Part shown: piece after piece, positions 1 to 60,700 of the stretch
Layout of the letters: the number at the start of each line of letters is the position of its first letter
How positions within the stretch are numbered: the stretch's first letter is position 1
Assembly: GCF_029542785.1 (NCBI RefSeq)
Contig: NC_083378.1
Coordinates: 248,001 to 312,000, forward strand
Direction of reading: 5' to 3'
Origin: Malassezia japonica
Taxonomy: Eukaryota > Basidiomycota > Malasseziomycetes > Malasseziales > Malasseziaceae
Length of the DNA stretch: 64,000 bases
Notes under the pieces: model-generated
What the model saw: the letters and a program-made list of their open reading frames with translations, nothing else
Databases searched by the model: none
Told to the model about the DNA's origin: nothing
Made by a program: the position numbers and the translations under genes

Positions 1-1004
1 GGTGCTGCGCGACGAGCCCCGGATGCGTCGGCACGAGCTTGGCGAGCGCGAGCAGCGCAATGTACTTGAGGTTCTGGTCCGAGTCCTCCAGAAAGCGGCC
101 GAGGTTGTCGACGCAACGCAGCGCGAGGTCCTCGCTGCCCGCCCCCTCGAGCATGCCTCCTATAATCGCCGTGTGGATGCACTCGTACAAGACGCTCATC
201 GCCGGCGTCGTCGAGATGATCTCCGAGATTGGCCGCAGGAGCTTGCGGACGAGGCGCGGCTCGACGCGCGCGAGCGCGCCAAATAGCTTCACGACCTTGA
301 TCAGGAGCCAGTTGTTGCTCGTGTTCGTCAGGATCTCGAAAAGCTGCGGCGACAGCGGGACAAACGGCGCCGGGTTCCTGCGGGCCAATTCGCACACGGC
401 GTTCACGGTCGCGGTGACGACGCCCTGGTCGGGGTCGCACAAGAGATCACGCATGCGCTCCCAGGTGCGGTCCAAAATTTGCGGGTACTTGACGATCGCC
501 GAGTAGAGCACGAGCACGGCGCGCTTGCGGACGCGCGCCCGGGAGTGGGTGAGCATCACGGCGATGTCTTCCGAGAGGTGCTGAGCGAGTTCCTGTGTAA
601 TGACATGCGAGAGACCATTCAGCGCCGCGAGCACGTCGAGTGGAGCGGCCGAATGCAGGTCCTGTGTGAGTCGATCGGCGTACCTTTTTGATCAAATTGG
701 TCGCGAGAATCAGCACTTCTGTGTCTTCCGAGAAGCACAATGCCGCGGCGAGGTAGCCGATATGCTTCACATGGTACTTGGACGAGGCCATCGCCTCGAG
801 CATGCTAAACGACGCGCTCTTTACCTCGTAGCCGAGCATGCGGAGGTAGGCGAGCTTGAGCACTGCTTCCGCCTTGACGTCCATGTCGGCGCTTTTCACC
901 TCGGTGCGGATTTCGTCCAGCATACTGGCAATGTACTTCGCCTCATCCTTGCCGCGGTGCGAGCGCAGCCCCTTGATGAGCGTCGTGAGCGACTTTTCGA
1001 ACAT
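1..1004 (-). CDS. APL5: AP-3 adaptor complex delta subunit, N-terminal part (cut by window edge)
   Basis: Large subunit of the AP-3 adaptor that sorts cargo from Golgi/endosome to the vacuole. The first 107 codons (1004-684) begin MFEKSLTTLIKGLRSH and contain the family signatures DEAKYIASMLDEI, LAYLRMLGYE and HIGYLAAALCF, typical of the delta-adaptin trunk. A 22-nt intron at 683-662 joins ...ATNLIKK to DLHSAAPLDVLAALNGL. The second exon continues open to base 1 (VTATVNAVCELARRNP, NNWLLIKVVKLFGALAR), which is the HEAT-like adaptin trunk. About 327 residues are visible; the rest lies left of the window. The start is the first ATG of the conserved N-terminus. A TATATAAG sequence at 1091-1098 lies about 90 bp upstream, but on the opposite strand, so its role is doubtful. 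The gene reads in the same direction as the betaine-lipid synthase behind it, 118 bp away. Confidence 0.9.
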
Positions 1005-1122
1005 CGTCCACGCCCCGGGCGACGGTGCGAAGCGAAGCGAGCGCGACGAGCACGTGGTAATGTGGAGGTTGACGGACGTGCGCCGATTCGTATATAAGCT
1101 CGATGGAGTCTACTTGGTGTGT

Positions 1123-3521
1123 CTACTGGCGCACGGCGCGGTAGAAGGAGGCGTACATGTTCACGTTGTCAATCGGCTTGTTCGTCTCGCGGATGTGCAC
1201 GGGCGAGACACGGAAACCAGCCGCCTCGAAGCGCTCCGAGTACCAGGGGTGCTTCGCAGCGCTGCGCCAGAACACGATGCCGCCCTTGGCAATGACGCGT
1301 GCAAGCTCCACGACCTCGCGGTCGAGGTCCGAGATGGACTTGTCCTCCTCGTCGCGCGCCTTTTCGAGGCTCGGGAGCGCGACCGAGGCCGGGATCGGGT
1401 CGAACCAGTCCATGTGGTCCATGAGGATGGCGCGCGTCAGCGAGCTGTCCTGCATGCCGCGCAACACCGACACGATCGAGTCGGTGTGCAGGCGGAACGA
1501 GTCGAGCGCCTCGCTGTTGTTCGCCTTGAGCTTTTCGAAAGCGTCCCGCTTGAGGTAGAGCGGGCAGCTCTCCTTGGTGTAGTTGCCCATCAGGCAGAGG
1601 CGGTAGTGGTAGTTTTCCGTCGAGAGCAAGGAGCGCGCCGGGACCGCGTCCAGCGTGTCGATGGCAAACTGCTCCACACTGCCCTCCTTTTTGAAGATGT
1701 TGAGCTGGTTCATCGGGACGCCGAGCGCGTTCCAGAGGAACGCGGGGTTCGCCAAAAAGAGGCGAATCAGCGTCTCGTTGATGATCGTTTTGCGCACCTT
1801 GGTGTCCCAGATCTGCTTTTGCTCCTCAATGGAACGGGTGGTGCACATCTTGTCCACGTCCTTGCGCACGCCCATCAGCTGGAACGCGGCCTTAGCGAGA
1901 CGAAGCGCGTGACCCGAGTAACCACGGAAGTAGAACGCCTTATCGAACGACGAGTTGTTCGTGCGCCAGAACTGGTATGCGTGCGAAGACAGGTTCGGCG
2001 AGATACGCTCGTCGAGCAGCTGAGGGAAGTTGGGGGCCTTGCCGTCGCCAAACATCTGCCAGAAGGTTTCGTAGTCGAGCGTCGCGATCGCGGCGAGCTT
2101 CAGCTCGAGCAGGTGACCCTGGCAAGGGTTCATGTCCACCGCATGGATGCGGCGGGGCTTGGACGTGCACGCGTAGTGCAGCGCATTATCGCCGGCACTC
2201 GTAATGCACAGAATCGAGTCCTCGGGGCCGAGATCGAGGTGCTCAATGTCCACGTAGGGGTCCTCCCACGTGAAGCCGTAGATCCACGTGCGGAACATGT
2301 CGCTGAAGCGATCGTCCACGAACGGCAGGCGCCAATGGCGCTGCTGGTAGTGGAAGGAGCTCTGGGGCCACTGGATTGCGAGGTCCTGCTTCAGCTCGGC
2401 CACCTTTTCGGTCGAGGGCTCGGCCTTGGCGGTTTGGAGGCGCGCACGTGCCACATCCGGGAACGACGGCGGGACCGCGACATTGTTGCCCGCCTCGACC
2501 TCAAACGCCTGGACGGCCTTGGTGGTGTCGCGCTCGCGCGACACACCGAGCCAGATATAGTAGGGGATGCGCACCAGGTACGGCACGATAAAGTGGTTGC
2601 GGCCGTTGAAGCACTTGATCGTACCAAACTTGTGCTCGAGGTAGTCGCGACGCGCGGGGTGCAGCTCGATGTGGTCGAGCGAGAACCAGTTGCGCCAGAA
2701 CCACGAGTTGAGCCAGTGGCACTTGCGCATCACCGAGCCGCCCACGAGCGTGCTCTGGTCCGAGGTCGACTCGGCGCTCGACACGTAAAAGTCGGCGACA
2801 CCAAACACACCGACCTTGGTGTCGAGGAACTCGTTGATCCGGTCGAGCACCGCAAAGAAGGGCGGGATCATCGAAATCGAGTAGGAGCAGGTGAACAGGT
2901 CGACCTTCTTGTCGTCCGGCAGGCCCGGCAGCTCAAAGTCCTTGGCGTTCTGGCAGAGCGCCTTGACGTTCTTGAAGCCGAGGCGCTGGAAGCGCTCGCG
3001 CGCGACCTCCAGCAGCGGCTCGCACAAATCGATCAAGAAGACCTGGTCGAACTCTGCGACCGGAAAGTACTTGTCCATCTGCTCAATGTTCCAGCCGGTG
3101 CCGCCGCCAATGTCGACCCAGATGAGCTTGCGGTGCGGCTCCTTTTCACGCAGCTGGCGCATCTCGGCAGCGCAAAGCCTGCGTTAGTTGTGCGACGTAC
3201 TTGAGCATGGTCTTGCGGCCACGAAGAAGACCGGTACGCGTCGCATCGTAGACTAAATTAGCATTTCGGAGACATACCCGAAGCCTGGTGTTGGTAGAAG
3301 CGGTCCAGGCGCTCGGCCTGGTTGTTGGTCTTGCCGAGCGGCTGGAGGAAACAGTTGTACGAAAAGACGAGCATCTCCCTGAACGGGCGGTACACCACCG
3401 CAAGTAGGGCAACAGCTGAGATCGAAACGGCCGCCGTGACCGCGACCGGTCCGAGCGACTCGAAACGGTGCAGCAGCGAGGGGGGGATCTGGCCACTGAG
3501 GCTCGAAAGTTTATCCAGCAT
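1123..3521 (-). CDS. BTA1: Betaine lipid (DGTS) synthase, BtaB-BtaA fusion
   Basis: Predicted to make the phosphorus-free lipid diacylglyceryl-trimethylhomoserine. The 783-residue product has a hydrophobic N-terminal segment (about residues 24-45) and a SAM-dependent methyltransferase domain with motif I VDIGGGTGWN near residue 117 and FLIDLCEPLLEVA. The C-terminal half is BtaA/DUF3419-like, with FTWEDPYVDIEHLDLGP, ITSAGDNALHYA and HAVDMNPCQGHLLELK. The methyltransferase-first order is that known for eukaryotic BTA1. Two introns, 25 nt (3277-3253) and 22 nt (3200-3179), give VYDATRTGLLRGRKTMLK then LCAAEMRQLREKEPHR. The start at 3521 is the only ATG that keeps the membrane segment. It diverges from the Sec39 gene. 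Family membership is clear; the lipid product is inferred from homology. Confidence 0.92.
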
Positions 3522-3790
3522 CCTAGTTCAATAAATCGAGTACGTCGCTACACGACGGAAAATGCACCACCTCAATTAAGACAGACTCTCGTCGTAGTAG
3601 TGGGTGAAGCGCTCGCGCCCCACGCGATCTGAAGCCCTACCGGCTACGTGTATCTTTCGCCTCCCGCTGCCACACGGCGCTGCTGCATGGCTCGTGCACG
3701 CACGTGCCATGCGCGCTGGCACGCGCGGAGCGTCGATTTATGTCCACGTGCGCCGCCTTGCATACGGGCGGCTCGTTTGCGTCACATCCA

Positions 3791-6517: not shown

Positions 6518-8482
6518 CTACTTGTTCATATAGATACATACGCGCCCGGCTGGGCTTGTTTCGAGCGTGTGCGCCTCGAGCGCGTGCGATGTGCCGTCGA
6601 GCGCGACGTGCATGGCGTACGTCGCTGTCCCGTCGAGCCATGCGCCGCCGACCTCGCGCTGGTTGAGCGTGACTCGGAGCGCGCGCTGCTCCTCCTCGCC
6701 AAGCACCAGGCGGATCATGGCGCTTGCGGTGCGGCGGGGCAGGTGGATCGCCTGCGGCACCGCATCGGCGCCGAGCGCGATGCGGACGTTGGCGAGCAGC
6801 TCGGACGCGTCGGGATCCGCGTACAGCTGCAGGCTCACGGCCTCCGCAAAGCACGGCAGCGGCTCGTGCGCCGGCTTGGCCGTGGCGGCCGCCGGCGCAG
6901 TGAGCGCGGCAGGGTGCGTGGGCCACGTCCGGTTCTCGACGCCCTGCACGACCTGCTCCAGCGTCACGGCAGGCGCGGCAGGCGCGGCAGGCGCCGGCGG
7001 CGCCGGGGGCCGTGGCGCCTCAATCACCGGCGTGGGCCGTGCCGGGGGCGTCGCGACCGGGCGTGGCGCCTGGGGCGCGACGTTCGCCACGCGCACGATC
7101 GGGCGCGCGTGGACCGGCGCCGGGCTCGCCGGCGAGCTCTGCGGCGGGCTCTCGCTCACCGGGGAGCCCGCGCTGCCCGGCGGCGGCACGGCGCCCGGCG
7201 TGCCCGGCGGCAGCGCCGCCTGGCGGTGGTCGTTCGGATCGAGCGTAAAGCCCTCGGCGAGCAGGGCGGGAATAATCACCTTTTCGAGGTGCGTGCGCAG
7301 GACCTGGGCGTCTTCCCACACCTCCGAGTGCTCCTCGTTGTAGAACTGCGCATTGCTCAGCATGCGGTACAGGTCCGAGACCAGCGCGTGGGGATTAATG
7401 TACTCTTTCTGGTCGAGCTTGCGGTCGATGTCGTGAAAGCTGATCGGGTGCTGGATGAACTGGTAGTAGTCGGGGTAATCCTGCCGCGACGGCAGCTCCA
7501 TAAACATTTCTGCATGTTTGCGGCCGCTGGGTAAGAGGTGCGACGTACCTGTCGTCCTGGAGCGAAGTAATGCTCTGCACGGCCCAGCGCAGCATGACCT
7601 TGAGGCGCTTGCCGCGCGGCGCGCCACGCCGGCGTGGCTCGGTAATGTACGGCGTCGTGATGGGGCGGGGAACGACCGGCGAGGTGTACGGCGGCACGAC
7701 GCGCGCAATCGGCGTCGATACAGGCGCAGGCGATGACTGTGCTGGCGTCGCATGCGTCGCGGGCGTCGCGGGCGTCGCGGGCGCCCCCGGCGCCGCGGTT
7801 TTGGGCGCGGGCTTCGCTTCCGGCTTCGCCTCGGCCTCTTTGCTCTTGGGCGTCTCGCTCTTTGGCGCACGCAGCGTGATCTTTTGCACCTTGGGCGTCT
7901 CGCGCTCTTCTTTCGGCACGGCCGAGCGCACGACCGACTCGGCGAGCTTGCGGCGCTTGGCATCGGCGCTGTCGTCGGCTGCGGCGCGCTTCTCGGCGCG
8001 CTTGGGCTTGTCGGTCTGCTCGGCGGCCCACGCGTCGTAGACATCGGTCGTTGCCTCTTTGATCATGCCCTGTGTTAGCCGAGATACGCACATGAAGGTC
8101 GCGCGCCTTGAGCCAAATGTCGCTGTCTTTCATATTAAAGCGCTTCGCATTGTTGCACATCAGCTCGAGATCCGCGCGAAAATCCGCGAGCGACGCGTAT
8201 TCCTGCTGCTTCACACGATTGCGCACCTCGCTGAGCGTCACAGGCTTCTTGATTACCACATAGTACTCGGGGTACTGCCGCCGGCTCGGCAGGCGCATAA
8301 ACGGCTCCGCGAGCGCGTCGCCGTCCGCGTCTTTTGCGTGGAGGAGCTGGTCGAGGACCTGCTGCCCCAGCTGTGCGACCTGCTCCGCACTCGGCACCGG
8401 CGCATCCGGGCCTGTACCCCGCCGTGCACTCTTGCGCACCTCGTCGGCCTGCGTCAGACACGCGACGTACCTTGCCGTGCAT
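6518..8482 (-). CDS. RSC4: Tandem bromodomain protein, RSC complex Rsc4-like
   Basis: A 632-residue chromatin protein with two N-terminal bromodomains. The first contains LPSRRQYPEYYVVIKKPVTL and LELMCNNAKRFNMKDSDIW; the second contains MELPSRQDYPDYYQFIQHPI and MLSNAQFYNEEHSEVWEDA. A lysine-rich linker separates them, followed by a proline/alanine-rich stretch and a conserved-looking C-terminal domain (MIRLVLGEEEQRALRVTLN). Two bromodomains without BAH or ET domains fit Rsc4 best, but a Bdf-type reader cannot be excluded. Three 22-nt introns lie at 8470-8449, 8091-8070 and 7548-7527. The first coding exon is only 12 nt (Met-His-Gly-Lys, 8482-8471). The promoter is a 63-bp stretch shared with the SCAMP gene and holds one CACGTG. 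It would read acetylated histones. Confidence 0.8.
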
Positions 8483-8545: not shown

Positions 8546-9503
8546 ATGGCGAGTGCGCGCGCGGCGCTGGACTCGAACCCGTTCGATGACCCGAGCGTGC
8601 AGAGTGCGATGCACAGCGGCGGGGATGACTTAGAGAACCCATTTGACACCGAGTCGCTGCGTCCCGGAAGCGTCGGCGGATACGCGCCGCCGCTGGACGA
8701 GGACGAGGACGAGGTGTACCCCACGAGCACGCACGGCACCGCTCCCGCGCATGCGATGCACGACGACGACCTTGCGCGGCGCGAGCGCGAGCTTGAGGAG
8801 CGTGAGCGCGAGCTCGATGCACGCACGGAGCACATGCGCAAGTTTGGGCGCAACAACTGGCCGCCGTTCTACCCACTGATCTACCACGACATTGACAGCG
8901 AGATCCCGCCGGACTCGCAGGAGGTGATGAAGCATCTGTACTATCTGTGGCTGCTCTGGTCCGCGACGCTCGTGTGGAATCTGCCGACCATGGTGTTGAT
9001 GGCGATCTACGCGGGCGGCAACTTTATTGGCGCCGTGTTCTACCTCGTCCTGCTGATCCCGCTGAGCTTTGTGCTGTGGTACCGCCCGGTGTACAACGGA
9101 CTAATGAAGGAGCATTCGCTCTTTTACTACGTGTACTTCCTCTTTGCAGGCTTCCACCTGCTCTTTTCGGCGTACGCCATCATCGGCTACCCCTCGAGCG
9201 GCTGCGGCGGCATCTGGAGCGTCGTCCACGCCTTTTCCAACAAGAAGATCCTCGCGGGGGTCTTTGCGGTAATCTCCACGGCGGGATTCTCGGTGCAGGG
9301 TCTCGGCAACCTCTGGTACTACCGTGTGGTACGTGTTTCCTACTCACCCAGATTTATGAACACAACAAGCAGAGTGCGTTGCGCGCGACTCACCGCAGAG
9401 GGACACACGTTTGCGCAGGCCAAGGCCGAGCTGGCTTCGCATGGCATGCGCGCCTACTTGTATGTATTCCCACTAACGCAGTATGCGCGGCTCTCAGGTA
9501 TAG
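8546..9503 (+). CDS. SCAMP-family secretory carrier membrane protein
   Basis: A 295-residue tetraspanning membrane protein of the post-Golgi/endosomal system. The N-terminus has the NPF-type repeats of SCAMPs (SNPFDDP, ENPFDTES), then a charged coiled coil (REREL-rich), the conserved FGRNNWPPFYPLIYHDI motif and four hydrophobic segments. Three introns are needed: 23 nt (9329-9351), 25 nt (9374-9398) and 22 nt (9460-9481). They isolate a 22-nt micro-exon (9352-9373) encoding about seven residues (IYEHNKQ). Downstream the frame gives KGHTFAQAKAELASHGMRAY and ends FMRGSQV-stop. Without splicing this conserved tail falls out of frame. The gene diverges from the Rsc4-like gene and converges on CDC10, with 64 bp between stops. 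Confidence 0.88.
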
Positions 9504-9567: not shown

Positions 9568-10622
9568 TTACGCACCCGGCGCAGCGACAGGCGCACCCTG
9601 CGGCGCGCCACCCTGCACAGGCGGTTGCGCACTTGTGTACTGCTGCTGTGCGTGCTGTGCCTGCTGCTTGGCGCTGCTCTCCTTGAGCGCCAGGAGCTGC
9701 TTCGAGCGGAAGGACTCGTAGTACGTGTTCGACGTCGTCTCGATCAGGTCGTGCAGGTTCGTGCGCAGCAAAAAGTCGCGCAGCTGCACAAACTCGCAGT
9801 GTGCCTTGTTTTCGACATTGATCAGACCGCTGCCGACCTGGCGGCCACGGATAAGCTGGCCGTCGGCCTCAAACGTCTTTTCCGCGCTCACCACCGCAAA
9901 GGGGAGGAGGCTCTGCACCAGGCTGTTCGCCTCGCGCTCCTCCTCCTCGTAGTCCTCGTGGTCAAAGGGGTACACACGGATACCGTTCGACTGCAGCGAG
10001 GCGCGGATGCGCTTCTTGAAGAGCTCGCGCTCGCCGAGCGTCAGCGAGTCCGACTTGGCAATGACGGGGATGACGTTCGCAATGTCGCCGAGCTTCTTCA
10101 GCACCTGGATGTCGATCGAGCGCAGCGAGTGGCCGGAAGGGTTGATAAAGAACAGCACAGCGTGCACGCGCGAGTCGGGGATGTTGCGCTCACGCACGGC
10201 AGTCAGCTCCTTGCGCAGGTAGATGCTGTACTGGTCCTTGATGTACTTCACGATGGGCTCCCAGCAGTGCTCGTTGTTGATCAGATCACCGTAGCCGGGG
10301 GTGTCGACAATGTTGAGCTTCAGCTTGACGCCGTTCTCGATAATGTCTGGGTTAGATAAGAAAAAAACGTACTGTGAGAGGTGGCATTGATGCTCGTCGT
10401 CTGGCGCACCTCGTCCGAGGGGTCCACACGGCCCTTGGTCGTAAGCAGGTTCGACGAAAAGAGCGTGTTGATCATCGAGCTCTTGCCGAGGCCCGACTGG
10501 CCCACAACCATGACATTGAACTGGAAACCACGACGAAGGAGCTTCGTCTCGATTTGCTTCGTAAGAGTGTCGAAACCGACGTAGCCCGAAAGGGGCGTGG
10601 CAGCAGACTCGCTGGCGGACAT
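9568..10622 (-). CDS. CDC10: Septin, Cdc10 type
   Basis: A GTP-binding septin of 342 residues that assembles into filaments at the bud neck or septum. The polybasic region and P-loop near residues 27-49 read KLLRRGFQFNVMVVGQSGLG followed by KSS. G3 is DTPGYGD and G4 is AKSD. Septin-unique element patterns include EPIVKYIKDQYSIYLRKEL and DLIETTSNTYYESFRSKQLL. The C-terminus is short, glutamine- and proline-rich and without a coiled coil, as in Cdc10 rather than Cdc3, Cdc11 or Cdc12. One 26-nt intron at 10372-10347 joins ...INATSH to NIIENGVKLKLN. It has a long T-run and the branch-like CTAACCCAG. The start at 10622 (MSASESAATP) is the only ATG ahead of GYVGFDTLTKQIE. Its promoter, shared with the next gene, contains TCACGTGAC. 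Confidence 0.95.
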
Positions 10623-11431: not shown

Positions 11432-13453
<2,022 letters not shown>

Positions 13454-20244: not shown

Positions 20245-20713
20245 CTAGTTCGCCGCGTCGAAGCGCGCCTTGCTCGCGGCAAAGAGCTGCTCCTGCTGGC
20301 GCTGCAGCTCCTCTTCCGATAGCCCAGATAGCTCGAAGCGGGATGCTTTGCGTTCGCGTTCCTGCGTCAGAGAAAAGCAAAACACGCACCTTTTGGTGCT
20401 GCTTGTGGTCGTTCAGCACGTCCTGCACCTCGCGTGTGTATTTCTCAAAGCCGAGATCAATGAGCGCCTTGACGACGTGATCCGGCGCAATGGTCTTCTT
20501 CGAGTCCTTCTCGCACGCCTCGTTCGCCTCTGAGGACACGAGGTGGATAAACTCCACACAGCACTCGATCAGCAGATCGCGCGTGTCCTTCGCGCAGCTC
20601 ATGTCCGAGGGCAGGTAGTCCTGGATGAGCTTCTGGATGGTCGCCTTGGGGAGCGAAAGCTCCTCATCATCAGGCGCCGTGCTGCCACCAAAGTCCCGTT
20701 CGTCGTCCGACAT
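20245..20713 (-). CDS. NCB2: Negative cofactor 2 beta (Dr1), histone-fold TBP regulator
   Basis: A 146-residue histone-fold subunit that with NC2 alpha clamps TBP on DNA. The fold spans LPKATIQKLIQDYLPSDMSC, ARDLLIECC-type helix 2 (here DTRDLLIECCVEFIHLVSSE) and IAPDHVVKALIDLGFEKYTR. A 28-nt intron at 20389-20362 splits NDHKQHQK from ERERKASRFELSGLSEEELQ, giving the typical Gln/Glu-rich NC2 beta tail that ends ...KARFDAAN. The start is at 20713 (MSDDERDFGG). It diverges from the DAHP synthase gene across 87 bp that contain ACACGTGAC. Confidence 0.93.
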
Positions 20714-49002: not shown

Positions 49003-50752
49003 ATGTTCGTGAGGGGGCTCCGCAGCGCCTGGCGGCCGTACGCACGCGCGTGCTGGACGTCGAGCGCGTTGGCAGGCGGCGGCATCGCCGCGTACACAAT
49101 TTCTTCGAACGCATGGAATGATGCGCGCGAAATTCCGCCGCCGACCGAGCACCGCTTTCCGCTGTGCTCGGTGCAGGCCTGGGGCAGCAATCGGTACGCC
49201 GCGCGACTTACCCAGCAACAAGGTAGCAGCACCGCAGAAGAACAAGGCGACGGTAAATGTCCCGCTGGAGATGCCGGCGTTTGACGGCGTCGCGCTGCGC
49301 GATCTCCAGCTCAGCGAGACGTACGGCGCGGCGGTCGACGCCCACGGCGACGTCGTCCAGTGGGGCCTCGGCTTCTCGGACGAGCTCGACCCCAAGACGA
49401 GCCTCACACCGCAGCGCACCCTCACCGGCAAGGATATCGTGCGTGTGCAGCTGTGTGGGCCCAAGATTTATGCCTTGTCGCGCAGCGGCGCCATCTACGT
49501 CTTTGCGTCGCAGCGCATCCACCAGCTCGTCCCGACCTCGTGGCTGAACAAGCTCCCAGGCGCCGCCGCATCGATCGACTACGTGAAGCTAAGCCCGATG
49601 CAGGGTTCACGTAGCGCCTCAGCGTCGTTTGTCGCGATCGCTGCGGGCGAGCACCACTTGCTCGCCCTGGCCAAGAACGGCTCGGTGTGGTCCGTGCCGG
49701 TCGACGAGCACGCGAATGCGTACGGCCAGCTGGGCTACACGCGCACGACGATCAACGCCGCGTCGGCCTCGGATGCGCACAAAGTGCAGCCGATCGACTG
49801 GCGCCTCGAGCCCAAGGTCGTGGCGCGCTCGCCGGCCGGAGGCGCCGCCGAGGTGCCGCTCGACGACCTTCCCGCCGGCTCGGTGTGGGTGCCGCCGAGC
49901 AGTATCCGCTTTGCGACGCAGATCCGCCCGGTTCCGTCGCTCGATGGCGTGGTCTTTGCGCAGATCGCTGCCGGCCTCGAGCATTCGGTCGTGCGCACGC
50001 CCGAGGGCCGCGTGCTGGCGTGGGGCCGCAACGCCAACGGCGAGCTCGGCCTTGGGGCGGGCGTGCACATCGATACCGTCGCCGTGCCGAGCGAGGTTAC
50101 CTGGCCGCGCTCCGTGGTGGGCAAGAATGCGCAGTGCACGAATGTCGCTGCCGGAAGCAACAACACCTTTTTTGTCGTGCAAAGCACCGGCGCACCGGAG
50201 GAGACGGTACCCGAAGCGGCGCGTGCGCTTGCTTCCGTGCAGCAGCGCATCGATGTGCTGGCGGTCGGTGCCGGGCAGCGCGGCACGCTTGGCAATGCGC
50301 AGCGCAACCAGCTGAGCAATGTCCCGGCGCGTGTGCGCACCGTGTCGGGCCTGCAGGAGTACTCCGAGGCGGCGCGGGCCATGACGCCGATCCCTGTGCG
50401 CTCGCTGTCTGTCGGCACCGACGGCCAGGTGGCGGTTGTGATGGACGCGCCGCCTGTGGGTGACGAGACGCGCCGCGATGTCTACGTGTGGGGCGCCAAC
50501 GACCAGTACCAGCTGGGCCTCGGCAAGCGCTCGAACCTCGCGATGCCTGCGCTCCTCACGCTTTCTCCCGAGGGCGACGAGGCGGCGCGCAATGCACCCG
50601 TCCTCAACCGTGTGCTGCTGGTCGAGCGGCAAAAGGTCCCTGGCAAAGCGTACGATCCCCACGGCAACGGGACGCAGCGGGCCTACCATGTCGAGCAAGA
50701 CATTGTGGCGGGCGGCCAAGGCATGGCAGTCTACGGTCGGATTGTTCTCTAG
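49003..50752 (+). CDS. RCC1-repeat mitochondrial protein, Fmp25-like
   Basis: A 575-residue beta-propeller protein. The N-terminus is basic with an apparent presequence (MFVRGLRSAWRPYARACWTS) and a short hydrophobic stretch (SALAGGGIAAYTIS). RCC1 repeats follow, including VVQWGLGFSDELDPK, FVAIAAGEHHLLALAKNGSV, IAAGLEHSVVRTPEGRVLAW then GRNANGELGLG, CTNVAAGSNNTFFVVQ and DVYVWGANDQYQLGLGKRS. A 22-nt intron at 49194-49215 joins CSVQAWGSNR to NKVAAPQKNKA. This architecture fits yeast Fmp25 (needed for complex III assembly), not the nuclear Ran exchange factor. Its stop codon (50750-50752) abuts the stop of the convergent aldo-keto reductase gene. Confidence 0.85.
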
Positions 50753-51698
50753 TTACTCGCCATAGTACTTGGTGTTTTCCCAGCCTGTGTGAGTCAAAAA
50801 GAAACGTACCCATCTGCTCCTTGGTCCAGCCCAGCACCGTGCCGCTCTGCTTGTCGTAGGTGACATAGTTGAGGCGGCCCTGGCGCGAGGGGTCCTTGGT
50901 GATGTCGTGGATGCGCTGCATCTGGGCGTCGGTGAGTGTAACGAGCTGAATGTTCTTGCGCGCACGGCCCGGGTTCGTGCTCTTCGGCAGAACACCCACG
51001 CCGCGCTGCACGTTCCAGGAGAGGACGACCTGCGCCGGGGTAACGTCACCGCCGATCTCCTCGGCGATCGCCAGCACATCCTTGTCCTTAAGGATCGGCG
51101 AGTCGGCCTGGCCAAGCGGCGTGTAGGCCGTGACAAAGATGTTGTGCTTCTGGCAGAGTTCGAGCACGTCCCAGTCCTGGTTGTAGGGATGCGTCTCGAT
51201 CTGGTTGTTCGCCGGGACGACCTTGGCGTGGGCCAGGAGCTCGCTGAGCGTCTTGACGCTGAAGTTGGACACGCCAATCGCGCGCACCTTATCCTTGCGC
51301 GTCTCGAGCAGCTTCTCCATGTCCTTCCAGGTGTCGACGAACGAGACGTTGTCGCCACTCGACTGCGGCCAGTGCATGAGGTACAGGTCGATGTAGCCCA
51401 CGTTCAGGCGCGAGAGGCTCTCGTCGAACGCCTTCTCGACATTGCTGTGGTCGGCGTTCCAGAGCTTGGTCGTGACAAAGATCTGGTCACGGGGCACGCC
51501 GCTGTCGCGGATCGCCTTGCCCACGAGCTCTTCGTTGGCGTAGAGCGCGGCAGTGTCAAAGTGACGGTAGCCCGCGTCGAACGAGACGTTCAGTCCGTTC
51601 TCCAGATCAAACTTGCCGGGCGAGCCCATCCAGCAGCCCATGCCAACGGCAGGGATCTTGGCACCGGTGTTCAGCGTAAAGTACTTCTGGTCCGCCAT
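50753..51698 (-). CDS. Aldo-keto reductase (Gcy1/Ypr1-like)
   Basis: An NADPH-dependent carbonyl reductase of 306 residues. The catalytic tetrad is visible: Asp48 and Tyr53 in AGYRHFDTAALYANEELVG, Lys78 in IFVTTKLWN and His109 in YLMHWP. NADPH-site motifs are IGVSNFSVKTL, NQIETHPYNQDWDVLELCQK, YTPLGQADSP and VLPKSTNPGRARKNIQL. A 25-nt intron (50809-50785) near the 3' end restores QMGWENTKYYGE-stop; without it the tail is frameshifted. The substrate is not predictable. The start is at 51698 (MADQKYFTLNTG). Its 115-bp promoter is shared with CKS1 and contains TCACGTGAC. Confidence 0.94.
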
Positions 51699-51813: not shown

Positions 51814-52261
51814 ATGTCGAACGAGCCTTCGTACGAGGAGTACGTGGAGCGGTACGTATCCTGGCTGATGAAAGCATCCACTACTCGGAGAAGTACTCCG
51901 ACGATCACTGGGAGTATCGGTAGGTGTTTGGCGCGCGATTGGGCTTACACAGGCACGTCATTCTCCCGAAACCGTTCCTGAAACGGATCCCCAAGTCATA
52001 CTTTGATCCCGAGGAGCCGGGCGTGCTCCGTATTTTATCTGATGCGGAATGGCGGGGCATCGGAATTACACAGAGTCTCGGTTGGGAGCACTACGAGGTG
52101 CATGGTACGTGCTCCGACTCACCCAGCACCCGAGCCGCATATCCTCCTGTTCCGCCGCGAAAAGGACTATCAGGAAAAGGTAGGTCGTCTATCTAACGCA
52201 GTACGGGCCACATGGGAAACCATCGGACGCGGCCAGGATCAAAGGCGCGCAGGGCGCATAG
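51814..52261 (+). CDS. CKS1: Cyclin-dependent kinase regulatory subunit Cks1/Suc1
   Basis: A small adaptor that binds Cdk1 and phosphorylated substrates, 115 residues. Four introns break this short gene: 23 nt (51852-51874), 33 nt (51920-51952), 22 nt (52105-52126) and 22 nt (52180-52201). The spliced product reads [13 protein letters not shown], then [60 protein letters not shown] and [14 protein letters not shown]. This has the family's HVILP, GWEHY and EPH-LLFRR motifs, including the hinge His-x-Pro-Glu-Pro-His. The last exon is a short basic tail. The 33-nt intron contains an in-frame stop, so it must be removed. Confidence 0.96.
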
Positions 52262-52377
52262 CCGACGGCAGTGCGCGCAGTTCGTCCATAGCTCAGCGGG
52301 GTAGCCAACCTATCGCTCCGACCTGGCCGGATCAGGATCTATGCGTCGAGGATGTATGCGGCTCCACATCCGCCGCC

Positions 52378-54157
52378 ATGGTGCCCACCGAGACGGAATT
52401 CGCGTGCGCGCTCGAGCGGCCGCGCGACGTGGTGCAGGCGACGTACGGTAGGTAGTGAGCCTAATGTAGCTGAGTGTGGCAGTATTCAAGGGACGGCCGA
52501 GCGCGTCGAGGCGCACTACCGGCACCTCTTTCGCGACACGGAGCGGCGCATGCGCGTACGTCTATGCACTCACCCAGATCCCGCTGCTCGACGTGCACAA
52601 TGTAGACGTGCTGCTGGAGAGGGCACAGAGCCCCGAGGGGCGCCGAAATGGCGTGCTCGTCCGCTGGCGGTGCATGGTGCAGGATACTGGCGTAGGTACT
52701 GTGGCTGACGCAGCTGGGCTGTGAGCTGTTCTTGGGCACGTTGCAGGCAAATAAGCAGCCGGTCTGCGGCCTGTACGGTGCCGAGGCGCGGTATGAGGGC
52801 GAGGACGCGGTCGACGCCGCGGCACCGGGGAATATGGCCGAGCGCCTTGCGTTGTTTGGCGTGTCGGTGCCGGGCGAATCGCCGTGGGCACACCAGCTGC
52901 TCGCCGGCCAGAGCGACGAGGACGTCGCGGCGGCACTCGGCAAGATGGCGATTCACAGCGACGAAAAAAAGACGCACGCCTCGGAGCGCACACCGATCCC
53001 AGAGCAGCCGAGTATCACGGCGCTGCTCAAGCTCGCGGACGTCGACAAGGCCGAGCAGCTGCGCACGACCGAGATCGTGGACGTCGTCGGGCTCTTGGAT
53101 CTGAGCTTTATCCCGAATCCCGACCTGCCGCTCGGCGACGAGAGCACAGATGCCGCGGTGCCGCAGCTGCCGTGCATCCATGCGCTCTTCTTTGACAAGG
53201 CGACCGAGCGCGCGTCGCTCCTGCCGCTCCTTGAGCACGCGGCGGTGTCGATGCCGCGCGCGTACGCCACGCCGATCGACGCGCGCACAGCGCTGATTGC
53301 GCACCTGGCCGAGCACCTCGGCGGCGACGCGCTCGCTGCCGAGTTCCTGCTGCTCGCCCTCCTTGCGAAAATGTACGTCGCATGCCTAACGCAGCCATAT
53401 CCGCCGCCCTGGCCTCGCGGTCGGCTCCTTGTCGCTCAATTTGTCGAATGTGCGCTCGACCACGCCGCATACCGCGCTGCGCAGCACGCTCGAGGCGCTT
53501 GTGCCGGCCGTCGTCGAGGAGCGCCTCACGCTCGCCGAGCTCAACGATCCGAAGCGCACCTACTTTGTGCGCAGCACCGATGCGGGCATGACTGCAGGAC
53601 GCCTGCAGCTCGCCGACAACACCTGTGTGCTCGTCGACGAGGTATGCATGGGCGAGGGCCAGCTCCTGGACGCGGGCGTGCGCAACATCCGCGCCCTCGC
53701 GGGCGTGATGCAGAGCCACACGCTCTCGTACCAGTTCCCCTTTTCGGAGATCGACCTGGACACGGACTTGAACGTGGTCGTGCTGAGCACCGGCAAGTCG
53801 CTCCTGCCCGCCGACGTCCACGTGCCGCTGCGGCCGGCGGCCGGCGGCGCAGTGGACCTCGGCAAGGCCGCGCTCTCCGCTTCGCCGGCCGCGCTGCAGG
53901 CGTGGCGCGCGTACCTCCTCACGACACGCCAGGGCGACGCGCGCGTACCGGAATCCATGTCCGCGCCGGTCCAAAACTACTTTGTCGAGCGCCGCCAAAA
54001 CGGGCCGCGCTTCGCGTATACAGAAGTCGACCTGCAGCGGTGTCTCGGCATCGCGCGCCTCGTCGCCGTCTCTTTCGGCCTCGATGAGCTGACCGAAGAG
54101 GCGTGGCAGCACGCGACGCGTCTCGACGAGGCACGCGCCGCCCGCCTCGCTCCGTAG
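52378..54157 (+). CDS. MCM-binding protein (MCMBP)
   Basis: A replisome regulator that binds MCM2-7 (replacing MCM2) and helps unload it. The 563-residue product needs four 22-nt introns: 52448-52469, 52556-52577, 52692-52713 and 53373-53394. Conserved stretches are RWRCMVQDTGLGCELFLGTL, IHALFFDKATERASLLPLLE, HLGGDALAAEFLLLALLAKI, GRLQLADNTCVLVDEVCMGE, GQLLDAGVRNIRALAGVMQS and STGKSLLPADVHVPLRP, all diagnostic for MCMBP. The start at 52378 (MVPTETEFACALERP) lies 116 bp behind CKS1. The stop is only 9 bp from the ATG of the next gene on the same strand. Confidence 0.93.
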
Positions 54158-54166: not shown

Positions 54167-55505
54167 ATGGTCCAGGACCGTAGCCAAGACGAGGCGTGGC
54201 GCGCACGGTACGAAGCCAGCAAGGCGAGCGGTGTCGAGCGCGTGCAGCGTGCGTCTGGCATGACTCCGCGGCGCGAGTCGGGGCCGTGGACGCCGCGCAC
54301 GCCGCGCGAGACACCGCCGGCACGGAGCACACTGACGCCCCGCAACGCTACGCCCAGTGCTGCGCATACGCCGTTGCAGCGCAAAGGCGCGTTTGCGAGC
54401 CCGGTACGCGCGCGCGTCGCGGACGATGCGCCGACACTGCATGCAGAGGCGCCGACAGCAAGGACGTGGAAAGAGAGGGCACAGGAATGGTACGTCGCGT
54501 GCCTCACACAGGGCGCAGCAGCTCCCGGGTGCGGCGCAGTCGACCTGGCAAGGCATCGAGATGGAGCTCGAGCAGGCAGTGTACGCGCCCGAGCTGGGTG
54601 TGCCGATTGCTCTTACGCTGCATGCGCTCTCGCTCCTCTCGCAGCTCATGCTGCCCGGCTCGGCATTCGCACTGCCCGGCGTCTCGTCGAGCTACAAGCC
54701 GCCGAGCCAGCGCAGGGGGCACACGCGCCTCTTTTCCGACCGGCGCCGCGGCGACGCGGGCAAGGGGTACTCGGCGTACCTCGGTCGCATGCTCGCGGCG
54801 CAGCGCACGGCTGCGCTCACGTATACAGTACGTCGCTTCTCTTACGCAGTCGCGCATGCTCTCGCTCGCCCTAGTCCTTGCGGCGGCGTACAATGCATAC
54901 CTCTTGTTCTCGCGGAGGCGCGCGTACCGCCTGTGGTACCGCGACGAGAAGGATGTCTTGCAGAATCCCCATGCATCGCTCGAGGAGCCGCCGCGCGACT
55001 CGCCGCCGCCGCCGACGTGGGAAGAGCGCGCTCGGTACGTGACATGGCTGACGCAGCGACCTCGCCCTGTTCTGCGCACGCCAGGTTCCGGTGCTGGAAT
55101 GGTTTGTGCCCCCGCCCCGCACGCGCCCGGCGCCGCCGCCGAGTCAGCGCGTGTACACGCTGCGTGTGTGGGACGTGCTCGAGGCGCCCCTCTATGTCTT
55201 TTCGTACGTTGCCTTGCTCACCAGACTCTACTCGCCCGCACACGCGCTGTGGTGGGCCGTGTCCGGCTCGCTGGGCATGCACGCATTTACGACCTACGCA
55301 CTGACCGCCGTGCTCATGGCCGCGTTCTCGTGCCAGACGTACTTCCTTGCGCTCGAGTATGCGGCGCTGGTGCGCGACCGCCAGGTGCTCTCTGGCGAGG
55401 TCCTCCGCGAGTACGACGAAAAGGTGCGTCGTTCGTCTAATACAGTTTGTCATGCCGCGTGCTATGCCACTTGTGCGCGACGCGTCGACCATGACGGATT
55501 CGTAG
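54167..55505 (+). CDS. NUR1: Nur1/Mug154-type nuclear rim protein (DUF2418)
   Basis: An inner-nuclear-membrane protein that tethers heterochromatin or rDNA, 409 residues. The N-terminal 110 residues are Arg/Ser/Thr/Pro-rich. After splicing, hydrophobic spans include MLSLALVLAAAYNAYLLFS and LGMHAFTTYALTAVLMAAF. The DUF2418 signature appears as LRVWDVLEAPLYVFSLYSPA, then HALWW, and ends EVLREYDEKFVMPRAMPLVR plus a short tail. Five introns lie at 54490-54511, 54828-54849, 55035-55056, 55204-55224 and 55424-55445; four are 22 nt and the fourth is 21 nt. The 21-nt intron interrupts FS/LYSPAH, and its removal gives the best match to the family's 'F.LFSPGH' motif. No promoter space separates it from MCMBP. 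Confidence 0.87.
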
Positions 55506-55519
55506 GCGCGGATATGTAG

Positions 55520-56080: not shown

Positions 56081-56153
56081 GGAGGCTTAGTCAACAAAGA
56101 GCCTTTGTGCGCACAAACCACCTTAAATAGGCGGCGCGCGCCCCAAAGCCGGC

Positions 56154-57795
56154 ATGCGCGCCGCGCCTGGGCTCGTTGCCGTGGCTGCGGCTACGGCGTG
56201 GTACGCATACAAAGGCATAGCAGCCGTCCAGCGGCGTGCGGCGCTGGCGACGAGCCTCTTGGCAGACGCGCGCGCGAGTATGGAGCATGCGTGCACCTCG
56301 GCAGACGCAGCCGTGCACACGCTGCGTAGCCTCCCTGGCGAAGTCACATGGCAGATGGGCGAGCAGAGTCTGCACGGCATTGAGTCGACTGTACGCTCGC
56401 TCGGTAGGATCCTGGTTGCGTGGTAAGTCCTTGTTCTGATCCAGCCTGGCACTGGCCGAGATGGCATTCGATCTCGTCTGCGCGACGTACCGCTCTTTTT
56501 TTCTCTGTACCGTACAGCTGGTCGTGCAAGGGACGCTCGCGGTCCTCGACGCGGCGACCGAGGCGATAGCCGATGCGGTCAAGGCCGCAGGCCAGGCGCT
56601 CGAGCTCGTGCTGCGCACGCTCATGAATGCCGCGCAGGGCACAGCGGACGTCGCTACCGATACCCTGAACGGCGTGCTGGGTCTCTTTGGGCAGCACATC
56701 CAAGCGCCACAGTGGAGCGAGCCGGCTGCCATGCAGGTCCTGCGCAACATCACACTCCCGCCCGCGCTCGTGCACCCGTTCCAGGAGCTGAGCACGCAGC
56801 TGCCGACCGTCGACTCGCTCCGTGCCGCGACCAAGGACACGTTTCACTTGGCTGTAGGCAACGTCCAAGACAATGTGAACCGCAGCGTTGCCATGGTCAG
56901 TCTGCGCATGCCGCCCCGAGCGCCGATAGCCGACGCAGCGCCAGTGTGTGCGCAGATGGACTGGGCGCTGCTCGACGCGTGCCGCGCAGCCGTGCGGCGC
57001 GCCGCCAGCATGGGCTATATTGCCGTGGCTCTCGGGGCTCTGCTTGCATTCGGACTGAGTTTGTGTGCGTATGGCCTTCCGGCGATGCGCACTTCGTACC
57101 CTACGTATGGGCGGCGTGTCGGTGCGCACTTCGTATCGGCCTTGGGCACGCCGCTCGTCGTCTTTCTCCTGGCTGCGCAGCTTCTTCATCTCGGCGTCGT
57201 GCAAGTCCAGCTTGGATCGGTGCATGTGCTTTTGCAGCGGATCCGCGAGCTGCCGACGCTGCCCGACGTCCCGTGGCCACTCGTTCAAGTAGGCAAGGAC
57301 GCGGCCGATGCCGCCAACGCGCAACTCGGCGCGGCGCAGGACGACATAAATCGTGCGCTCTCGGACAGCGTGCACCACCTCGTCCCCGGGGCGCTCGACA
57401 CGCTCAATGCGGTCCTGGATTTATTGTCGGGCACCATCCGCGATTTGCTCGGCAGCACGCCGATGCAAGGGCCTGTCTCGCAGTTTGCCATGTGTGTCGT
57501 CGGGAACAAGATTGCAGCGGCGGAGCATGCGCTGGCCCTTTTGCAGAGTGCACTGCATCTCACGCTGCCGACCCTTGAGGCGCCCACCCTTCCTACTACG
57601 ACGCTGCTGCAGCCAGTTGCGTCCGCGCTCGCCCGCGATGTATTCCAGCCGCTGACACGTGTCCTGGAGTCTGACGCCGCACAACTTTCGCGCGACCGCT
57701 TGGTCGTTGGGCTGATCTTGGCGGGCAGCGTATGTGCCCTTCTTTTCTCCGCCCTGGTCCACGCCCAGGAGCGGTCCCTAAAAATACTACAGTAG
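56154..57795 (+). CDS. PRM1: Plasma membrane fusion protein Prm1
   Basis: A pheromone-regulated multispanning protein that promotes cell fusion during mating, 539 residues. Hydrophobic segments include APGLVAVAAATAWYAYKGI near the N-terminus, FLCTVQLVVQGTLAVL, MGYIAVALGALLAFGLSLCA, TPLVVFLLAAQLLHLGVV and LVVGLILAGSVCALLFSALV at the end. Between them are two long extracellular amphipathic regions, the second with VPGALDTLNAVLDLLSGTIR and a Cys-containing MCVVGNKIAAAEHAL. A 22-nt intron at 56423-56444 removes an in-frame TAA and gives RILVACLALAEMAFDLVCAT. The start is at 56154 (MRAAPGLVAV). The last nine coding bases overlap the antisense end of SMC4. Confidence 0.85.
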
Positions 57796-60700
57796 CGGTG
57801 CGTGCGTTCCGCTCGCCTTGGTCGGCGACGCAAGCACCTTGGCTGGCGACGGGGGCACGGCCGGCGCATGTAGGTCCGTATTGTCGATCGCCAGGCTCTT
57901 GGTACAGTTGGCCGTTTTGTACACACCCACGAGGCGCGACGACAGCTCAAACATGTTGTTGCGCAGCGAAATGATGATGAACTGGGCGCCGCGCGTGCGC
58001 TCTTTGATAATGTTGGCAATAATCGACACATTGCGGAAATCCAGCGCAGCATCGATCTCGTCCATGACATAGAGCGGCGTGGGCTTGTAGGCGTGCAGCG
58101 CAAAGACCAGCGCGAGACTGCTCAGCGTCTTTTCGCCACCGCTCAGGTTGCTGATGTTCTTCCAGCTCTTCTTGGGCGGCATCACGCTAAAGATGATGCC
58201 CTCGCTGAACGGATCAAGGCTGTCGACCAGCTCGAGCTCCGCATTGCCGCCCAGCGTGATCGTCTGGTACATCTCCTTGAGCTTCATCGAGATTTGCGAA
58301 AAGCCCGCCATGAACCGCTCGAGACGCTCTTTGCGCAGCGCCTCGAATTGCTGCTGCGCCTGATCGCGTGCCTCGGTCGTCTGCTCCAGGTCCCTGGCAC
58401 GCGAGAGGAACGTCTCCTCGGTCTTGCGGTACTCGTCAAGAATGTCGATGTTGATGGGGTGCGCGGCCATGCGCGCCTCGAGCTCAGACATGGCCGCCTC
58501 GGTGGCGTGTGCATCGAGCGCCTCGAGCGCGGCTTCTTCGAGTTCTTCGAGGTGCGTCGACTCGGGGCGCAGCGAGGCGTGGGGCGTCGCCGAGGCTGAG
58601 CGGGCCACGTCCTCGGCCTCTCCCTCATCCTCGGCCTTGGTGGCCGCTTGCTCTCCTTCTTGCTCGTCTTGCTCGCTTTGGTCGCCTTCTTGCTCCGCCT
58701 CCTGCTCTGCCTCGGGCACGTCGTGCAGTTCGAGCTGGGCATGTTTCTCCTCCCACGTCCGCAGCTGCTTTTCGTGCTCGGCGACACGGCGCCTGAGGTC
58801 CTCGCGCTTCTGCTTGGTCTCCACCTCGAGCTTGCGAAAGACACGGAGCGAGTCGGTGTGTTCGTCGAGCTGCCCCTGCAGCTCTTTGCGTGCCTCGCTC
58901 TTTTCGTCCGCATCGTACCGCGCCGTGTCGAGCTCCTTGCGTGCCGCATCGGTCGCCGTTTCCTGCGCGCTGATCTTTTGCTGGAGTTCTTCGAGCTCTG
59001 CATCGATCGCTTGCAGTTGTTCCTCGCTCGACGCATGCGTCTTCTCGAAGCGCTTCAACTCGTTCTCCGCCTTGGACTTGGCGAGCTCGACCTTGGCCTG
59101 ACGCTCGGTAGCGAGTTGGATCTTTTCGCGCGCGCCTTCGACCTTGCTTTGGAGCGTGCGCAGCTCGACACCGCCGACCTCGAGGATCTGCTCCTGCAGC
59201 TCGCGGATTGCCTGCTCGATCGCACCACTCGTCGCCTCGAGCTCGGCCAGCGCGGAGGCGTGCTCGTCGAGCTCCTCGTCGAGCTCGGCGATGCGCGCCT
59301 CGTCGCTGTCGTTGCGGTCCGGTGCAGACTGCAGCGCTTTGAGGTGCTGCGTTGCATCGGCGACACGCTGCTCGCCAGCCTGCACGTCCATCTCGAGCAT
59401 CGCAAGCTTGCGCTGGATCTCGGGACCACGCTGCTCGCTCGCGCTGTGCATTGCAACAAGCTGCTGCAGCGATCTGCTGTGGCTCTCGAGCTCCTGCTGC
59501 GCGAGTTGTGCGTCTTTTTGGAGACGCGCAGCCTGCTCGCGCGAGATTTCGCCCGCGCTCAGCTTGGAGGACATGAGGCCCTGACGCGGTTTGCCGCCTC
59601 CGCCCGACATGGTACCGCTCTTGTCGATCAGCTGGCCATCCTCGGTGACGACGCGCCAGCGGCGCTTGCCGTACGCGATGCGGGTCGCCTGTGCGAGGTC
59701 CTTGGCGACGAGCGTATCGCCCAGCTCCGAGTAAAAGACGCGCGCGTACCGCGGATCCTTGCACGTAATCAAGTCATAGAGGCGGGGCACGTTCTCTGGC
59801 GTGGTGATTGGCGCCATGCCCTTGGTGTTCTCCTTGACCTTTTCCAGGACAAGGAAACGCGCGCGGCCGACATTATGCTTGCGCAGGTGCTCGATGCTCT
59901 GCTGACCTGCCTCGACAGACTCGACCAGGATATCATTCAAGGCACGGCACGCCGTGCTCACCGCCCGGTCGTACCGGTCGGGAATCGTGCCAAGGCTACC
60001 GAGGCGGCCGTGCAGGCCCTGCAAGAGGCCCAGCTCTGACTGGCGCATAAGGCTGTTGAGCACCTCGTTCTGCGACTGATTCGACTCCACTGATGCGATC
60101 GCGTCCTCTGCCGCGCGCTTGGCCGTCTGTGCTTTGATACGCAGCTTGTCTTCTTGCAGGCGCATCGACTGGGTAAGAAGGAAGACGCACCTCGATCATC
60201 TCTGCATCGTCCGCGGCCTTGTCCGAGAGCGATTCGTGCTCGGTCGTGAGGCGCTCCATTTCGGCACGCTGCATTAGCCACAGTTACATACCCGTTCCTC
60301 GGCCTCGCGCTCGAGGTCCCCCAAGCGCTCTTCCGCATCGATACGGCGCTGTGCGACCTCGTCGCCCCGCCCGGCCAGCAGCTCGCGCTCCTGCTGTGCG
60401 ACATTCCGCGCGGCCGTGCGCTCCTGGATCTTGGCGGCCCACGGCGCGAGCTCCTGCTGCTTTTCCTCGATCGCATCGTTAAACACGCGCGTCTTGCTTT
60501 CGAGCCCCTCGCACATGGTCTGCAGAGCCGCTTGCTCGCGCTCGAGCGACGACTCGTGCGCGGCGAGCTCGGCAAGGATCTGCTCGAGCTCCTCGCCCGC
60601 CTGCTGTGCGGCATCCCGTGCTTCCGACGCGCTTGAGCGGCCGTCGGCGAGGCTCGTCGCGAGCTTTTTGCGTTTTCCGTTCAGCAGCTTGGAGCGCGCA

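What the first reader, a model, noticed from the sequence alone, without database searches (positions are those of the whole stretch)
662..60291. A quantised intron population: 35 of 48 introns are exactly 22 nt
I reconstructed 48 introns in 26 genes from conserved protein sequence. Lengths: one of 21, thirty-five of 22, five of 23, three of 25, and one each of 26, 28, 33 and 34 nt. The 22-mers share one layout: donor GTACGT (or GTATGT, GTGCGT, GTAGGT, GTAAGT, GTACGC), a 7-nt spacer, CTNAY branch site, then NCAG or NTAG. The branch A is thus at position 17 of 22 nearly every time. Typical fungal introns are 50 nt or more; lengths near 20 nt are otherwise known mainly from ciliates and nucleomorphs. 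Most excisions are needed to keep a conserved protein in frame, and each fully contained spliced gene then has a length divisible by three. This implies a spliceosome adapted to a fixed donor-branch distance. I recall that Malassezia introns are short, but I cannot say whether this quantisation has been described.
Basis: partly seen in the sequence, partly recalled or inferred. Interest (0 to 1): 0.88.

Follow-up and report, generated by a model that had tools for sequence, protein, structure and literature searches.

The report
Yeast introns pinned at 22 nucleotides
In the skin yeast Malassezia japonica more than half of the introns examined here are exactly 22 letters long and almost none are shorter, which looks like the shortest length its splicing machine can handle, so the genome itself marks where that limit lies.

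Summary
In 264 kb, 46 of 46 informative 22-nt motifs shift the coding frame by +1 (random gaps 2.2%). A GT..AG-only model puts 41 of 105 calls at 22 (decoy 3 of 90), 40 of the 41 with the unscored branch motif at 14-18. Genome-wide, consensus matches with spacers 0-6, 7, 8-37 number 5, 1784, 457 (controls 3, 0, 15). It is a one-sided minimum with two floors (branch A at 17; 5 nt after it), not a fixed length.

Species: M. japonica (403/403). U2, U6, Cwc25, Isy1, Slu7, METTL16 look ordinary, so a specially adapted spliceosome is not shown; compaction to a steric limit fits better. Narrow tiny introns are known elsewhere; I found no report for Malassezia in the searches made.

New: one M. brasiliensis protein carries three in-frame read-throughs fitting 21-nt introns with branch A at 16, two at M. 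japonica intron sites: the floor may differ between sister species.

The parts
662..683 (-). intron, 22 nt
   Evidence: frame-based models
3179..3200 (-). intron, 22 nt
3253..3277 (-). intron, 25 nt
7527..7548 (-). intron, 22 nt
8070..8091 (-). intron, 22 nt
8449..8470 (-). intron, 22 nt
9329..9351 (+). intron, 23 nt (SCAMP gene)
   Evidence: spliced protein matches Pfam SCAMP 1-171/172
9374..9398 (+). intron, 25 nt (SCAMP gene)
9460..9481 (+). intron, 22 nt (SCAMP gene)
10347..10372 (-). intron, 26 nt
11966..11999 (+). intron, 34 nt
19983..20004 (-). intron, 22 nt
20362..20389 (-). intron, 28 nt
20880..20902 (+). intron, 23 nt (DAHP synthase)
   Evidence: spliced protein identical 403/403 to database M. 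japonica protein
21529..21550 (+). intron, 22 nt (DAHP synthase)
21876..21897 (+). intron, 22 nt (DAHP synthase)
24392..24413 (-). intron, 22 nt
24705..24726 (+). intron, 22 nt (WD40 protein)
25031..25052 (+). intron, 22 nt (WD40 protein)
25571..25592 (+). intron, 22 nt (WD40 protein)
26215..26236 (+). intron, 22 nt
26975..26996 (-). intron, 22 nt
28278..28299 (-). intron, 22 nt
32334..32355 (-). intron, 22 nt
32773..32794 (+). intron, 22 nt
36235..36256 (-). intron, 22 nt
36914..36935 (+). intron, 22 nt
37791..37812 (-). intron, 22 nt (Erv25/p24 gene)
   Evidence: spliced protein matches Pfam EMP24_GP25L 2-182/182
38008..38029 (-). intron, 22 nt (Erv25/p24 gene)
   Evidence: read through in database protein P0034
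38502..38524 (+). intron, 23 nt
49194..49215 (+). intron, 22 nt
50785..50809 (-). intron, 25 nt
51852..51874 (+). intron, 23 nt (ends AAAG)
51920..51952 (+). intron, 33 nt
52105..52126 (+). intron, 22 nt
52180..52201 (+). motif of a 22-nt intron, not verified by frame
   Evidence: motif; a stop follows if it alone is spliced; frame open if retained
52448..52469 (+). intron, 22 nt
52556..52577 (+). intron, 22 nt
   Evidence: one search merges it with the next one
52692..52713 (+). intron, 22 nt
   Evidence: one search merges it with the previous one
53373..53394 (+). intron, 22 nt
54490..54511 (+). intron, 22 nt (nuclear rim protein 1 gene)
54828..54849 (+). intron, 22 nt; M. brasiliensis protein has a 21-nt read-through at the same residue and phase
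55035..55056 (+). intron, 22 nt
55204..55224 (+). intron, 21 nt (branch A at 17, 4 nt after it), not called by the gene models
   Evidence: its 7 residues are a gap in the 7 readable Malassezia homologs
55424..55445 (+). intron, 22 nt; M. brasiliensis protein has a 21-nt read-through at the same residue and phase
56423..56444 (+). intron, 22 nt
60169..60190 (-). intron, 22 nt
60269..60291 (-). intron, 23 nt

Best explanation
These are ordinary major-spliceosome (U2-type) introns of Malassezia japonica that have been shortened until they rest on two separate minimum distances: 16 nt from the first intron base to the branch adenosine (A at position 17) and 5 nt from that adenosine to the end of the intron. 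The sum gives the 22-nt mode. U6 (ACAGAGA box) holds the donor and U2 (GUAGUA) holds CTNAY; below this spacing both duplexes probably cannot be held at once, so shorter alleles fail to splice and are lost, while deletion pressure in a compact genome removes anything longer. Shown: the segments change the coding frame as excision predicts, the one-sided floors, the absence of trade-off between the two distances, intact U2 and U6 pairing sites, conserved Cwc25 and Isy1 N-termini. Inferred: the steric cause, the deletion pressure, and the removal itself (no RNA data here).
For: Frame test: of 106 22-nt motifs 46 are informative and 46 shift by +1; 6 of 7 informative 23-nt motifs shift by +2, 3 of 3 26-nt by +2, 2 of 2 25-nt by +1; at most other lengths there are 0-5 matches with mixed results, as for chance. 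Random 22-nt gaps shift by +1 in 266 of 12,046. Model with only GT..AG, uniform penalty, lengths 15-200: 41 of 105 calls are 22 nt, 40 of the 41 with CTNAY at 14-18; decoy TG..GA gives 3 of 90 at 22. Genome-wide matches for spacers 0-6 / 7 / 8-37: 5 / 1784 / 457, reversed controls 3 / 0 / 15. Joint distances in 159 calls under 60 nt with a branch motif: branch A at 17 in 108, below 17 in one, which one search shows to be a 22-mer with a donor 6 bases earlier; 5 nt after A in 123; minimal on both sides 96, donor side only 11, acceptor side only 26, neither 24, two others (odds ratio 8, p 5e-7), so no trade-off. U2 and U6 pairing sites match the consensus. Cwc25 starts MGAGDLNMKKSWHP against MGGGDLNLKKSWHP in solved chain 5yzg_X; the Isy1 N-terminus aligns to solved Isy1 chains from residue 1. 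DAHP synthase spliced at three such introns equals the database protein 403/403.
Against: No RNA reads were available. The M. brasiliensis 21-nt read-throughs with A at 16 suggest that a relative's introns go 1 nt lower, so the limit is not one universal number. The 21-mer at 55204-55224 is one below the second floor. Five genome matches have spacers 0-6 (control 3). The gene models also invent jumps (the decoy makes 90 calls), so individual off-peak calls, above all the 9 of 173 at 60 nt or more, are unreliable. U1 was not found; Prp8, SF1, U2AF35, Prp18 and SNRNP27K were not examined. Deletion pressure was not measured.
Confidence: 0.68

Rival explanations
1. The spliceosome of this lineage has changed so that it measures, and prefers, a set donor-branch distance (an evolved ruler that differs between species), rather than introns falling passively to a general limit.
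For: M. brasiliensis protein P0241 holds three in-frame 7-residue inserts that fit 21-nt introns with branch A at 16, two at exactly the sites of M. japonica 22-mers with A at 17; M. japonica has almost no consensus matches at A16 or below (5 against control 3). 1784 of the 2246 consensus matches counted sit at one spacing.
Against: U2, U6, Cwc25 and Isy1 look ordinary; longer spacings are not excluded; in-frame inserts reveal only introns whose length is a multiple of three, so the M. brasiliensis sample is biased, and it comes from one gene.
Confidence: 0.25
2. A recently multiplied family of short inserted elements (introner-like copies of one 22-nt unit), not independently shortened introns.
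For: One length and one layout in 1784 consensus matches.
Against: Mainly the splice-signal positions are conserved; spacer positions 7-13 carry 0.02-0.56 bits each. Two sites are shared by position and phase with M. brasiliensis, so those two are not recent inserts.
Confidence: 0.04
3. Artefact of gene modelling, assembly or motif choice.
For: The models do make errors: a 16-nt call was a 22-mer, a 156-nt call swallowed a 22-nt unit, and a decoy run invents 90 jumps.
Against: Peak present with GT..AG only and absent with the decoy; database protein agreement 403/403; resampled windows 0.125 against 35.
Confidence: 0.01

Closest known systems
Stentor coeruleus introns (PMC9505925: passages and section 10 seen)
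   Same: 15-16 nt, branch A at position 10 in 90.9% of introns, hence 5 nt from branch A to the end of a 15-mer.
   Different: M. japonica: 22 nt, A at 17, strong CTNAY branch motif (none strong in Stentor), a tail of longer introns, conserved Cwc25 plug and Isy1 N-terminus (both reported not conserved in Stentor).
Mikrocytos mackini introns (PMC10245619: passages seen)
   Same: Narrow tiny size class with conserved sequence (217 of 224 are 16 nt). The same passages give 18-21 bp for another extremely reduced genome, which I take from recall to be the Bigelowiella nucleomorph.
   Different: That is a reduced parasite with a reduced spliceosome; here a skin yeast with far more introns (about 5,200 by extrapolation) and the factors examined present.
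Fixed branch-to-AG distance in Yarrowia, Giardia, Trichomonas (Irimia and Roy, PMC2483917: passages seen)
   Same: Branch site anchored at a set distance from AG.
   Different: There the whole intron is not short (Yarrowia median 204 nt); here the donor side is pinned as well.
Other Malassezia introns (PMC9241646, PMC6473144, PMC4634964, PMC7426719: passages seen)
   Same: Described as very short; median 30 nt in M. restricta and 40 in M. arunalokei as annotated; the M. restricta annotation allowed introns down to 15-20 nt.
   Different: No 22-nt mode or branch geometry in the passages seen; M. globosa mean 76-79 nt.

Membership tests
U2-type (major) spliceosomal introns | GT..AG ends with donor GTRNGY | tested here: met
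   164 calls under 60 nt: +3 A/G 164, +5 G 162, +6 T/C 162 (GT..AG ends were required and donor letters weighted by the model)
U2-type (major) spliceosomal introns | branch site complementary to U2 GUAGUA, and U2 and U6 present | tested here: met
   CTNAY at 14-18 in 67 of 67 22-mers without branch scoring; U2 and U6 found with intact pairing sites
U2-type (major) spliceosomal introns | removal seen in RNA | not testable with these tools
   no RNA reads; frame shifts and one database protein stand in
U12-type introns | donor RTATCCTT (recalled) | tested here: not met
   +5 is G in 162 of 164
Narrow-size tiny introns (Stentor, Mikrocytos kind) | one dominant length near the floor | tested here: met
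   96 of 173 calls are 22 nt; 1784 of the 2246 consensus matches counted genome-wide
Narrow-size tiny introns (Stentor, Mikrocytos kind) | practically no longer introns | tested here: not met
   a tail, mostly 23-36 nt
Stentor-type spliceosome changes | Cwc25 glycine plug and Isy1 N-terminus not conserved | tested here: not met
   both conserved
Yarrowia-type fixed branch-AG distance | branch at a set distance from AG | tested here: met
   5 nt after A in 123 of 159

The most novel reading that the evidence does not exclude
The minimum donor-branch distance is a heritable, species-specific setting of the Malassezia spliceosome that differs by single nucleotides between sister species (A at 17 in M. 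japonica, A at 16 in M. brasiliensis), so that a genome-wide intron count reads out a structural parameter of each species' spliceosome.
Probability: 0.3. Interest if true: 0.75.

Novelty: new member of a known kind. Interest (0 to 1): 0.6.

Why it matters
Well over a thousand introns pressed against one lower limit give a natural measurement of how close the 5' splice site and branch point can be in a spliceosome whose examined parts look ordinary. If sister species differ by 1 nt, the cause could be mapped by comparing a few proteins. Practically, such introns get misread: database proteins of M. furfur and M. brasiliensis, and the unnamed-source protein P0034, contain peptides that fit intron read-through.

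Tried and rejected
U12-type introns: donor does not fit. Inserted repeat copies: spacers carry little information. Loss of second-step or branching factors because the branch lies so near the AG: Slu7, Isy1 and Cwc25 are present. A U1 change to match donor +4 C could not be tested: the Rfam U1 model and a U1 pattern found nothing, which does not show absence. Avoidance of lengths that are multiples of three was not pursued: in-frame introns are hard to see by frame. The species was first narrowed by clade, size and GC (note, M. japonica likely) and then settled by one identical protein; a last protein search with the nuclear rim protein model listed no M. japonica record, only relatives and fragments, so that gene's annotation could not be compared.

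Rows dropped: from the window set the 100-nt call and the 28-nt call at 37562-37589 (no branch motif; both also made); the 156-nt call was recounted as the 22-nt unit 52180-52201, which stays unverified. From the geometry table calls of 60 nt or more (9 of 173) and 5 calls without CTNAY, leaving 159. The genome count for spacers 8-37 is not cleaned: at least 3 of the 100 listed places span two neighbouring motifs.
Full report
What was checked. The window is C9:248001-312000 of an 8,433,779-base, 9-contig genome. A motif of donor GT[AG]NG[TC], variable spacer and CTNAYN[CT]AG shows a spike at total length 22 on both strands, 35 copies against a resampling mean of 0.125. I fetched 200 kb of contig C1 (20 stretches) and worked on that plus the window (264 kb, about 3% of the genome).

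Are they introns? The frame test looks at flanks, not at the motif: codon preferences learned from 68 long ORFs give the coding frame in the 90 bases on each side. Of 106 22-nt motifs 46 were informative, and 46 shift by +1, as removal of 22 nt demands; 6 of 7 informative 23-nt motifs shift by +2, 3 of 3 26-nt by +2, 2 of 2 25-nt by +1; at most other lengths there are 0-5 matches with mixed shifts, as expected of chance. Random 22-nt gaps shift by +1 in 266 of 12,046. A gene model knowing only GT and AG, with one flat penalty and lengths 15-200, makes 105 intron calls, 41 of them 22 nt and 11 of 23 nt; 40 of the 41 have CTNAY at 14-18, although no branch was scored; the same model with TG..GA makes 90 calls, 3 at 22. 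So such models invent some jumps, but not this peak. With learned donor and acceptor weights but no branch and no length term, 67 of 128 calls are 22 nt, all 67 with CTNAY at 14-18. With a branch bonus that does not depend on position but falls by about 2 bits from 22 to 52 nt, 173 calls: 96 of 22, 21 of 23, median 22; 34 of 49 in the window.

Homology. Four spliced window proteins give Pfam matches (DAHP synthase, SCAMP, WD40, EMP24). The DAHP synthase, spliced at introns of 23, 22 and 22 nt, is identical over 403 of 403 residues to a database protein of Malassezia japonica. This names the species; nine chromosomes and 62.35% GC are given for M. japonica in PMC7025860 (passages), and 8.3 Mb in PMC4634964 (passages). 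It also shows that for this gene the public annotation already removes these introns. The METTL16-family gene on C8 is interrupted by a 22-nt intron, and the family match continues in the shifted frame. Database protein P0034 (99% identical over 51% of my Erv25) holds a peptide at the site of intron 38008-38029 that, among the layouts tested, fits only this 22-nt one.

Genome-wide geometry. Exact consensus GTACGT-N7-CTNACNCAG: 922 + 862 = 1784, reversed control 0. Spacers 0-6 together: 5, control 3. Spacers 8-37 together: 457, control 15 (a few places span two neighbouring motifs); of the first 100 listed, 45 are 23 nt, 16 are 24, 14 are 25. So 1784 of 2246 matches (79%) sit exactly on the floor. 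In the 264 kb, 59 of 173 calls fit the exact consensus, which extrapolates to about 5,200 introns in the genome (an estimate). In 159 calls with a branch motif and under 60 nt, the branch A is at 17 in 108 and 5 nt follow it in 123. The single call below 17 has a donor 6 bases earlier and is then a 22-mer; the one 20-nt call ends in AG|CAG, so a 23-nt reading is equally possible. The two distances do not trade off: introns longer on one side tend to be longer on the other (odds ratio 8). Hence two separate minima, not one preferred total length.

The machinery. U2 and U6 are found with GUAGUA and ACAGAGA intact. In Stentor, whose 15-nt introns have the branch A at 10, the Cwc25 glycine plug and the Isy1 N-terminus are not conserved (PMC9505925, passages and section 10). 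Here Cwc25 begins MGAGDLNMKKSWHP and Isy1 MAQNQEKAQAVLYRFR, close to solved Cwc25 and Isy1 chains. Slu7 is present, a U2AF-large-subunit-like gene too (224 bits, below the TIGR01642 cut-off of 310.3; Pfam shows only an RRM), and a METTL16-family gene. U1 was not found by the Rfam model or a pattern; neither is evidence of absence. Reading: an ordinary core spliceosome may suffice, and the floor is where donor-U6 and branch-U2 duplexes can still both form. That last step is inference from recalled spliceosome structure.

A species difference. In the nuclear rim protein 1 gene (54167-55505) I aligned 8 of the 9 named Malassezia homologs. That supports it as an intron with the branch A at 17 and 4 nt after it. 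The M. brasiliensis protein P0241 carries three 7-residue inserts (VRETLIQ, VCYVLTQ, VCGWLMQ) absent from the other aligned proteins. Each fits, among the layouts tested, only a 21-nt intron with spacer 6 and branch A at 16, and the peptide pattern occurs nowhere else in the 256 proteins held (80,848 residues). Two of the three lie exactly where M. japonica has 22-nt introns (after residues 213 and 397, phase 0); at the third (after 247) my model calls none; a fourth 7-residue insert, in the poorly aligned N-terminus, does not fit the pattern. Such inserts reveal only lengths that keep the frame, so the sample is biased, but M. japonica has practically no consensus matches at A16. A M. furfur Erv25 record likewise fits read-through of a 23-nt unit with A at 18.

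What is known. Malassezia introns are called very short (PMC7426719, passage); annotated medians are 30 nt in M. restricta and 40 in M. arunalokei (PMC9241646, passages), with minimum lengths of 15-20 nt allowed for M. restricta (PMC6473144, passages); M. globosa mean 76-79 nt (PMC4634964). Narrow tiny introns are known from Stentor (15), Mikrocytos (16; PMC10245619, passages), Nyctotherus (21-29) and Paramecium (20-33; both PMC2633312, passages). Fixed branch-AG distance is known from Yarrowia and others (PMC2483917, passages). I found no statement of a 22-nt mode or a donor-branch floor in Malassezia in searches; of these, 14, 55 and 75 listed all papers found, the others only the top 20-30, and I read passages of a few. 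Three Malassezia genome papers that I asked for are not held and were not read, so it may be in print there.

Verdict. Observation confirmed and strengthened.

Noticed in passing
264 kb examined (window and L009-L028): Donor position +4 is C in 113 of 164 introns and A in only 4, although a METTL16-family gene with NPPF is present. In Saccharomycotina, loss of METTL16 goes with a switch from +4 A to +4 U (PMC10581693, abstract seen).
   Followed up: partly
96 22-nt introns, position +9: Pyrimidine in 83 of 96 and G in only 1; could reflect longer pairing with U6 beyond the donor hexamer (inference). Weaker in 61 longer introns.
   Followed up: partly
P0241, P0245, P0247, P0010, P0011 (relatives): Database Malassezia proteins look truncated, frameshifted, exon-skipped or carry 7-residue inserts at tiny-intron sites (by eye), so automatic annotation of the genus seems unreliable there.
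   Followed up: partly
52180-52447: Perfect 22-nt motif whose excision alone leads to a stop, while retention leaves the frame open; maybe an assembly indel or a further unusual intron.
   Followed up: partly
genome spacers 8-37 (one search list): Extra bases in longer introns are often runs of T or C (by eye), as if grown by slippage.
   Followed up: no
L009-L028 versus window: GC is 61.3% in 200 kb of C1 and 65.0% in the window.
   Followed up: no
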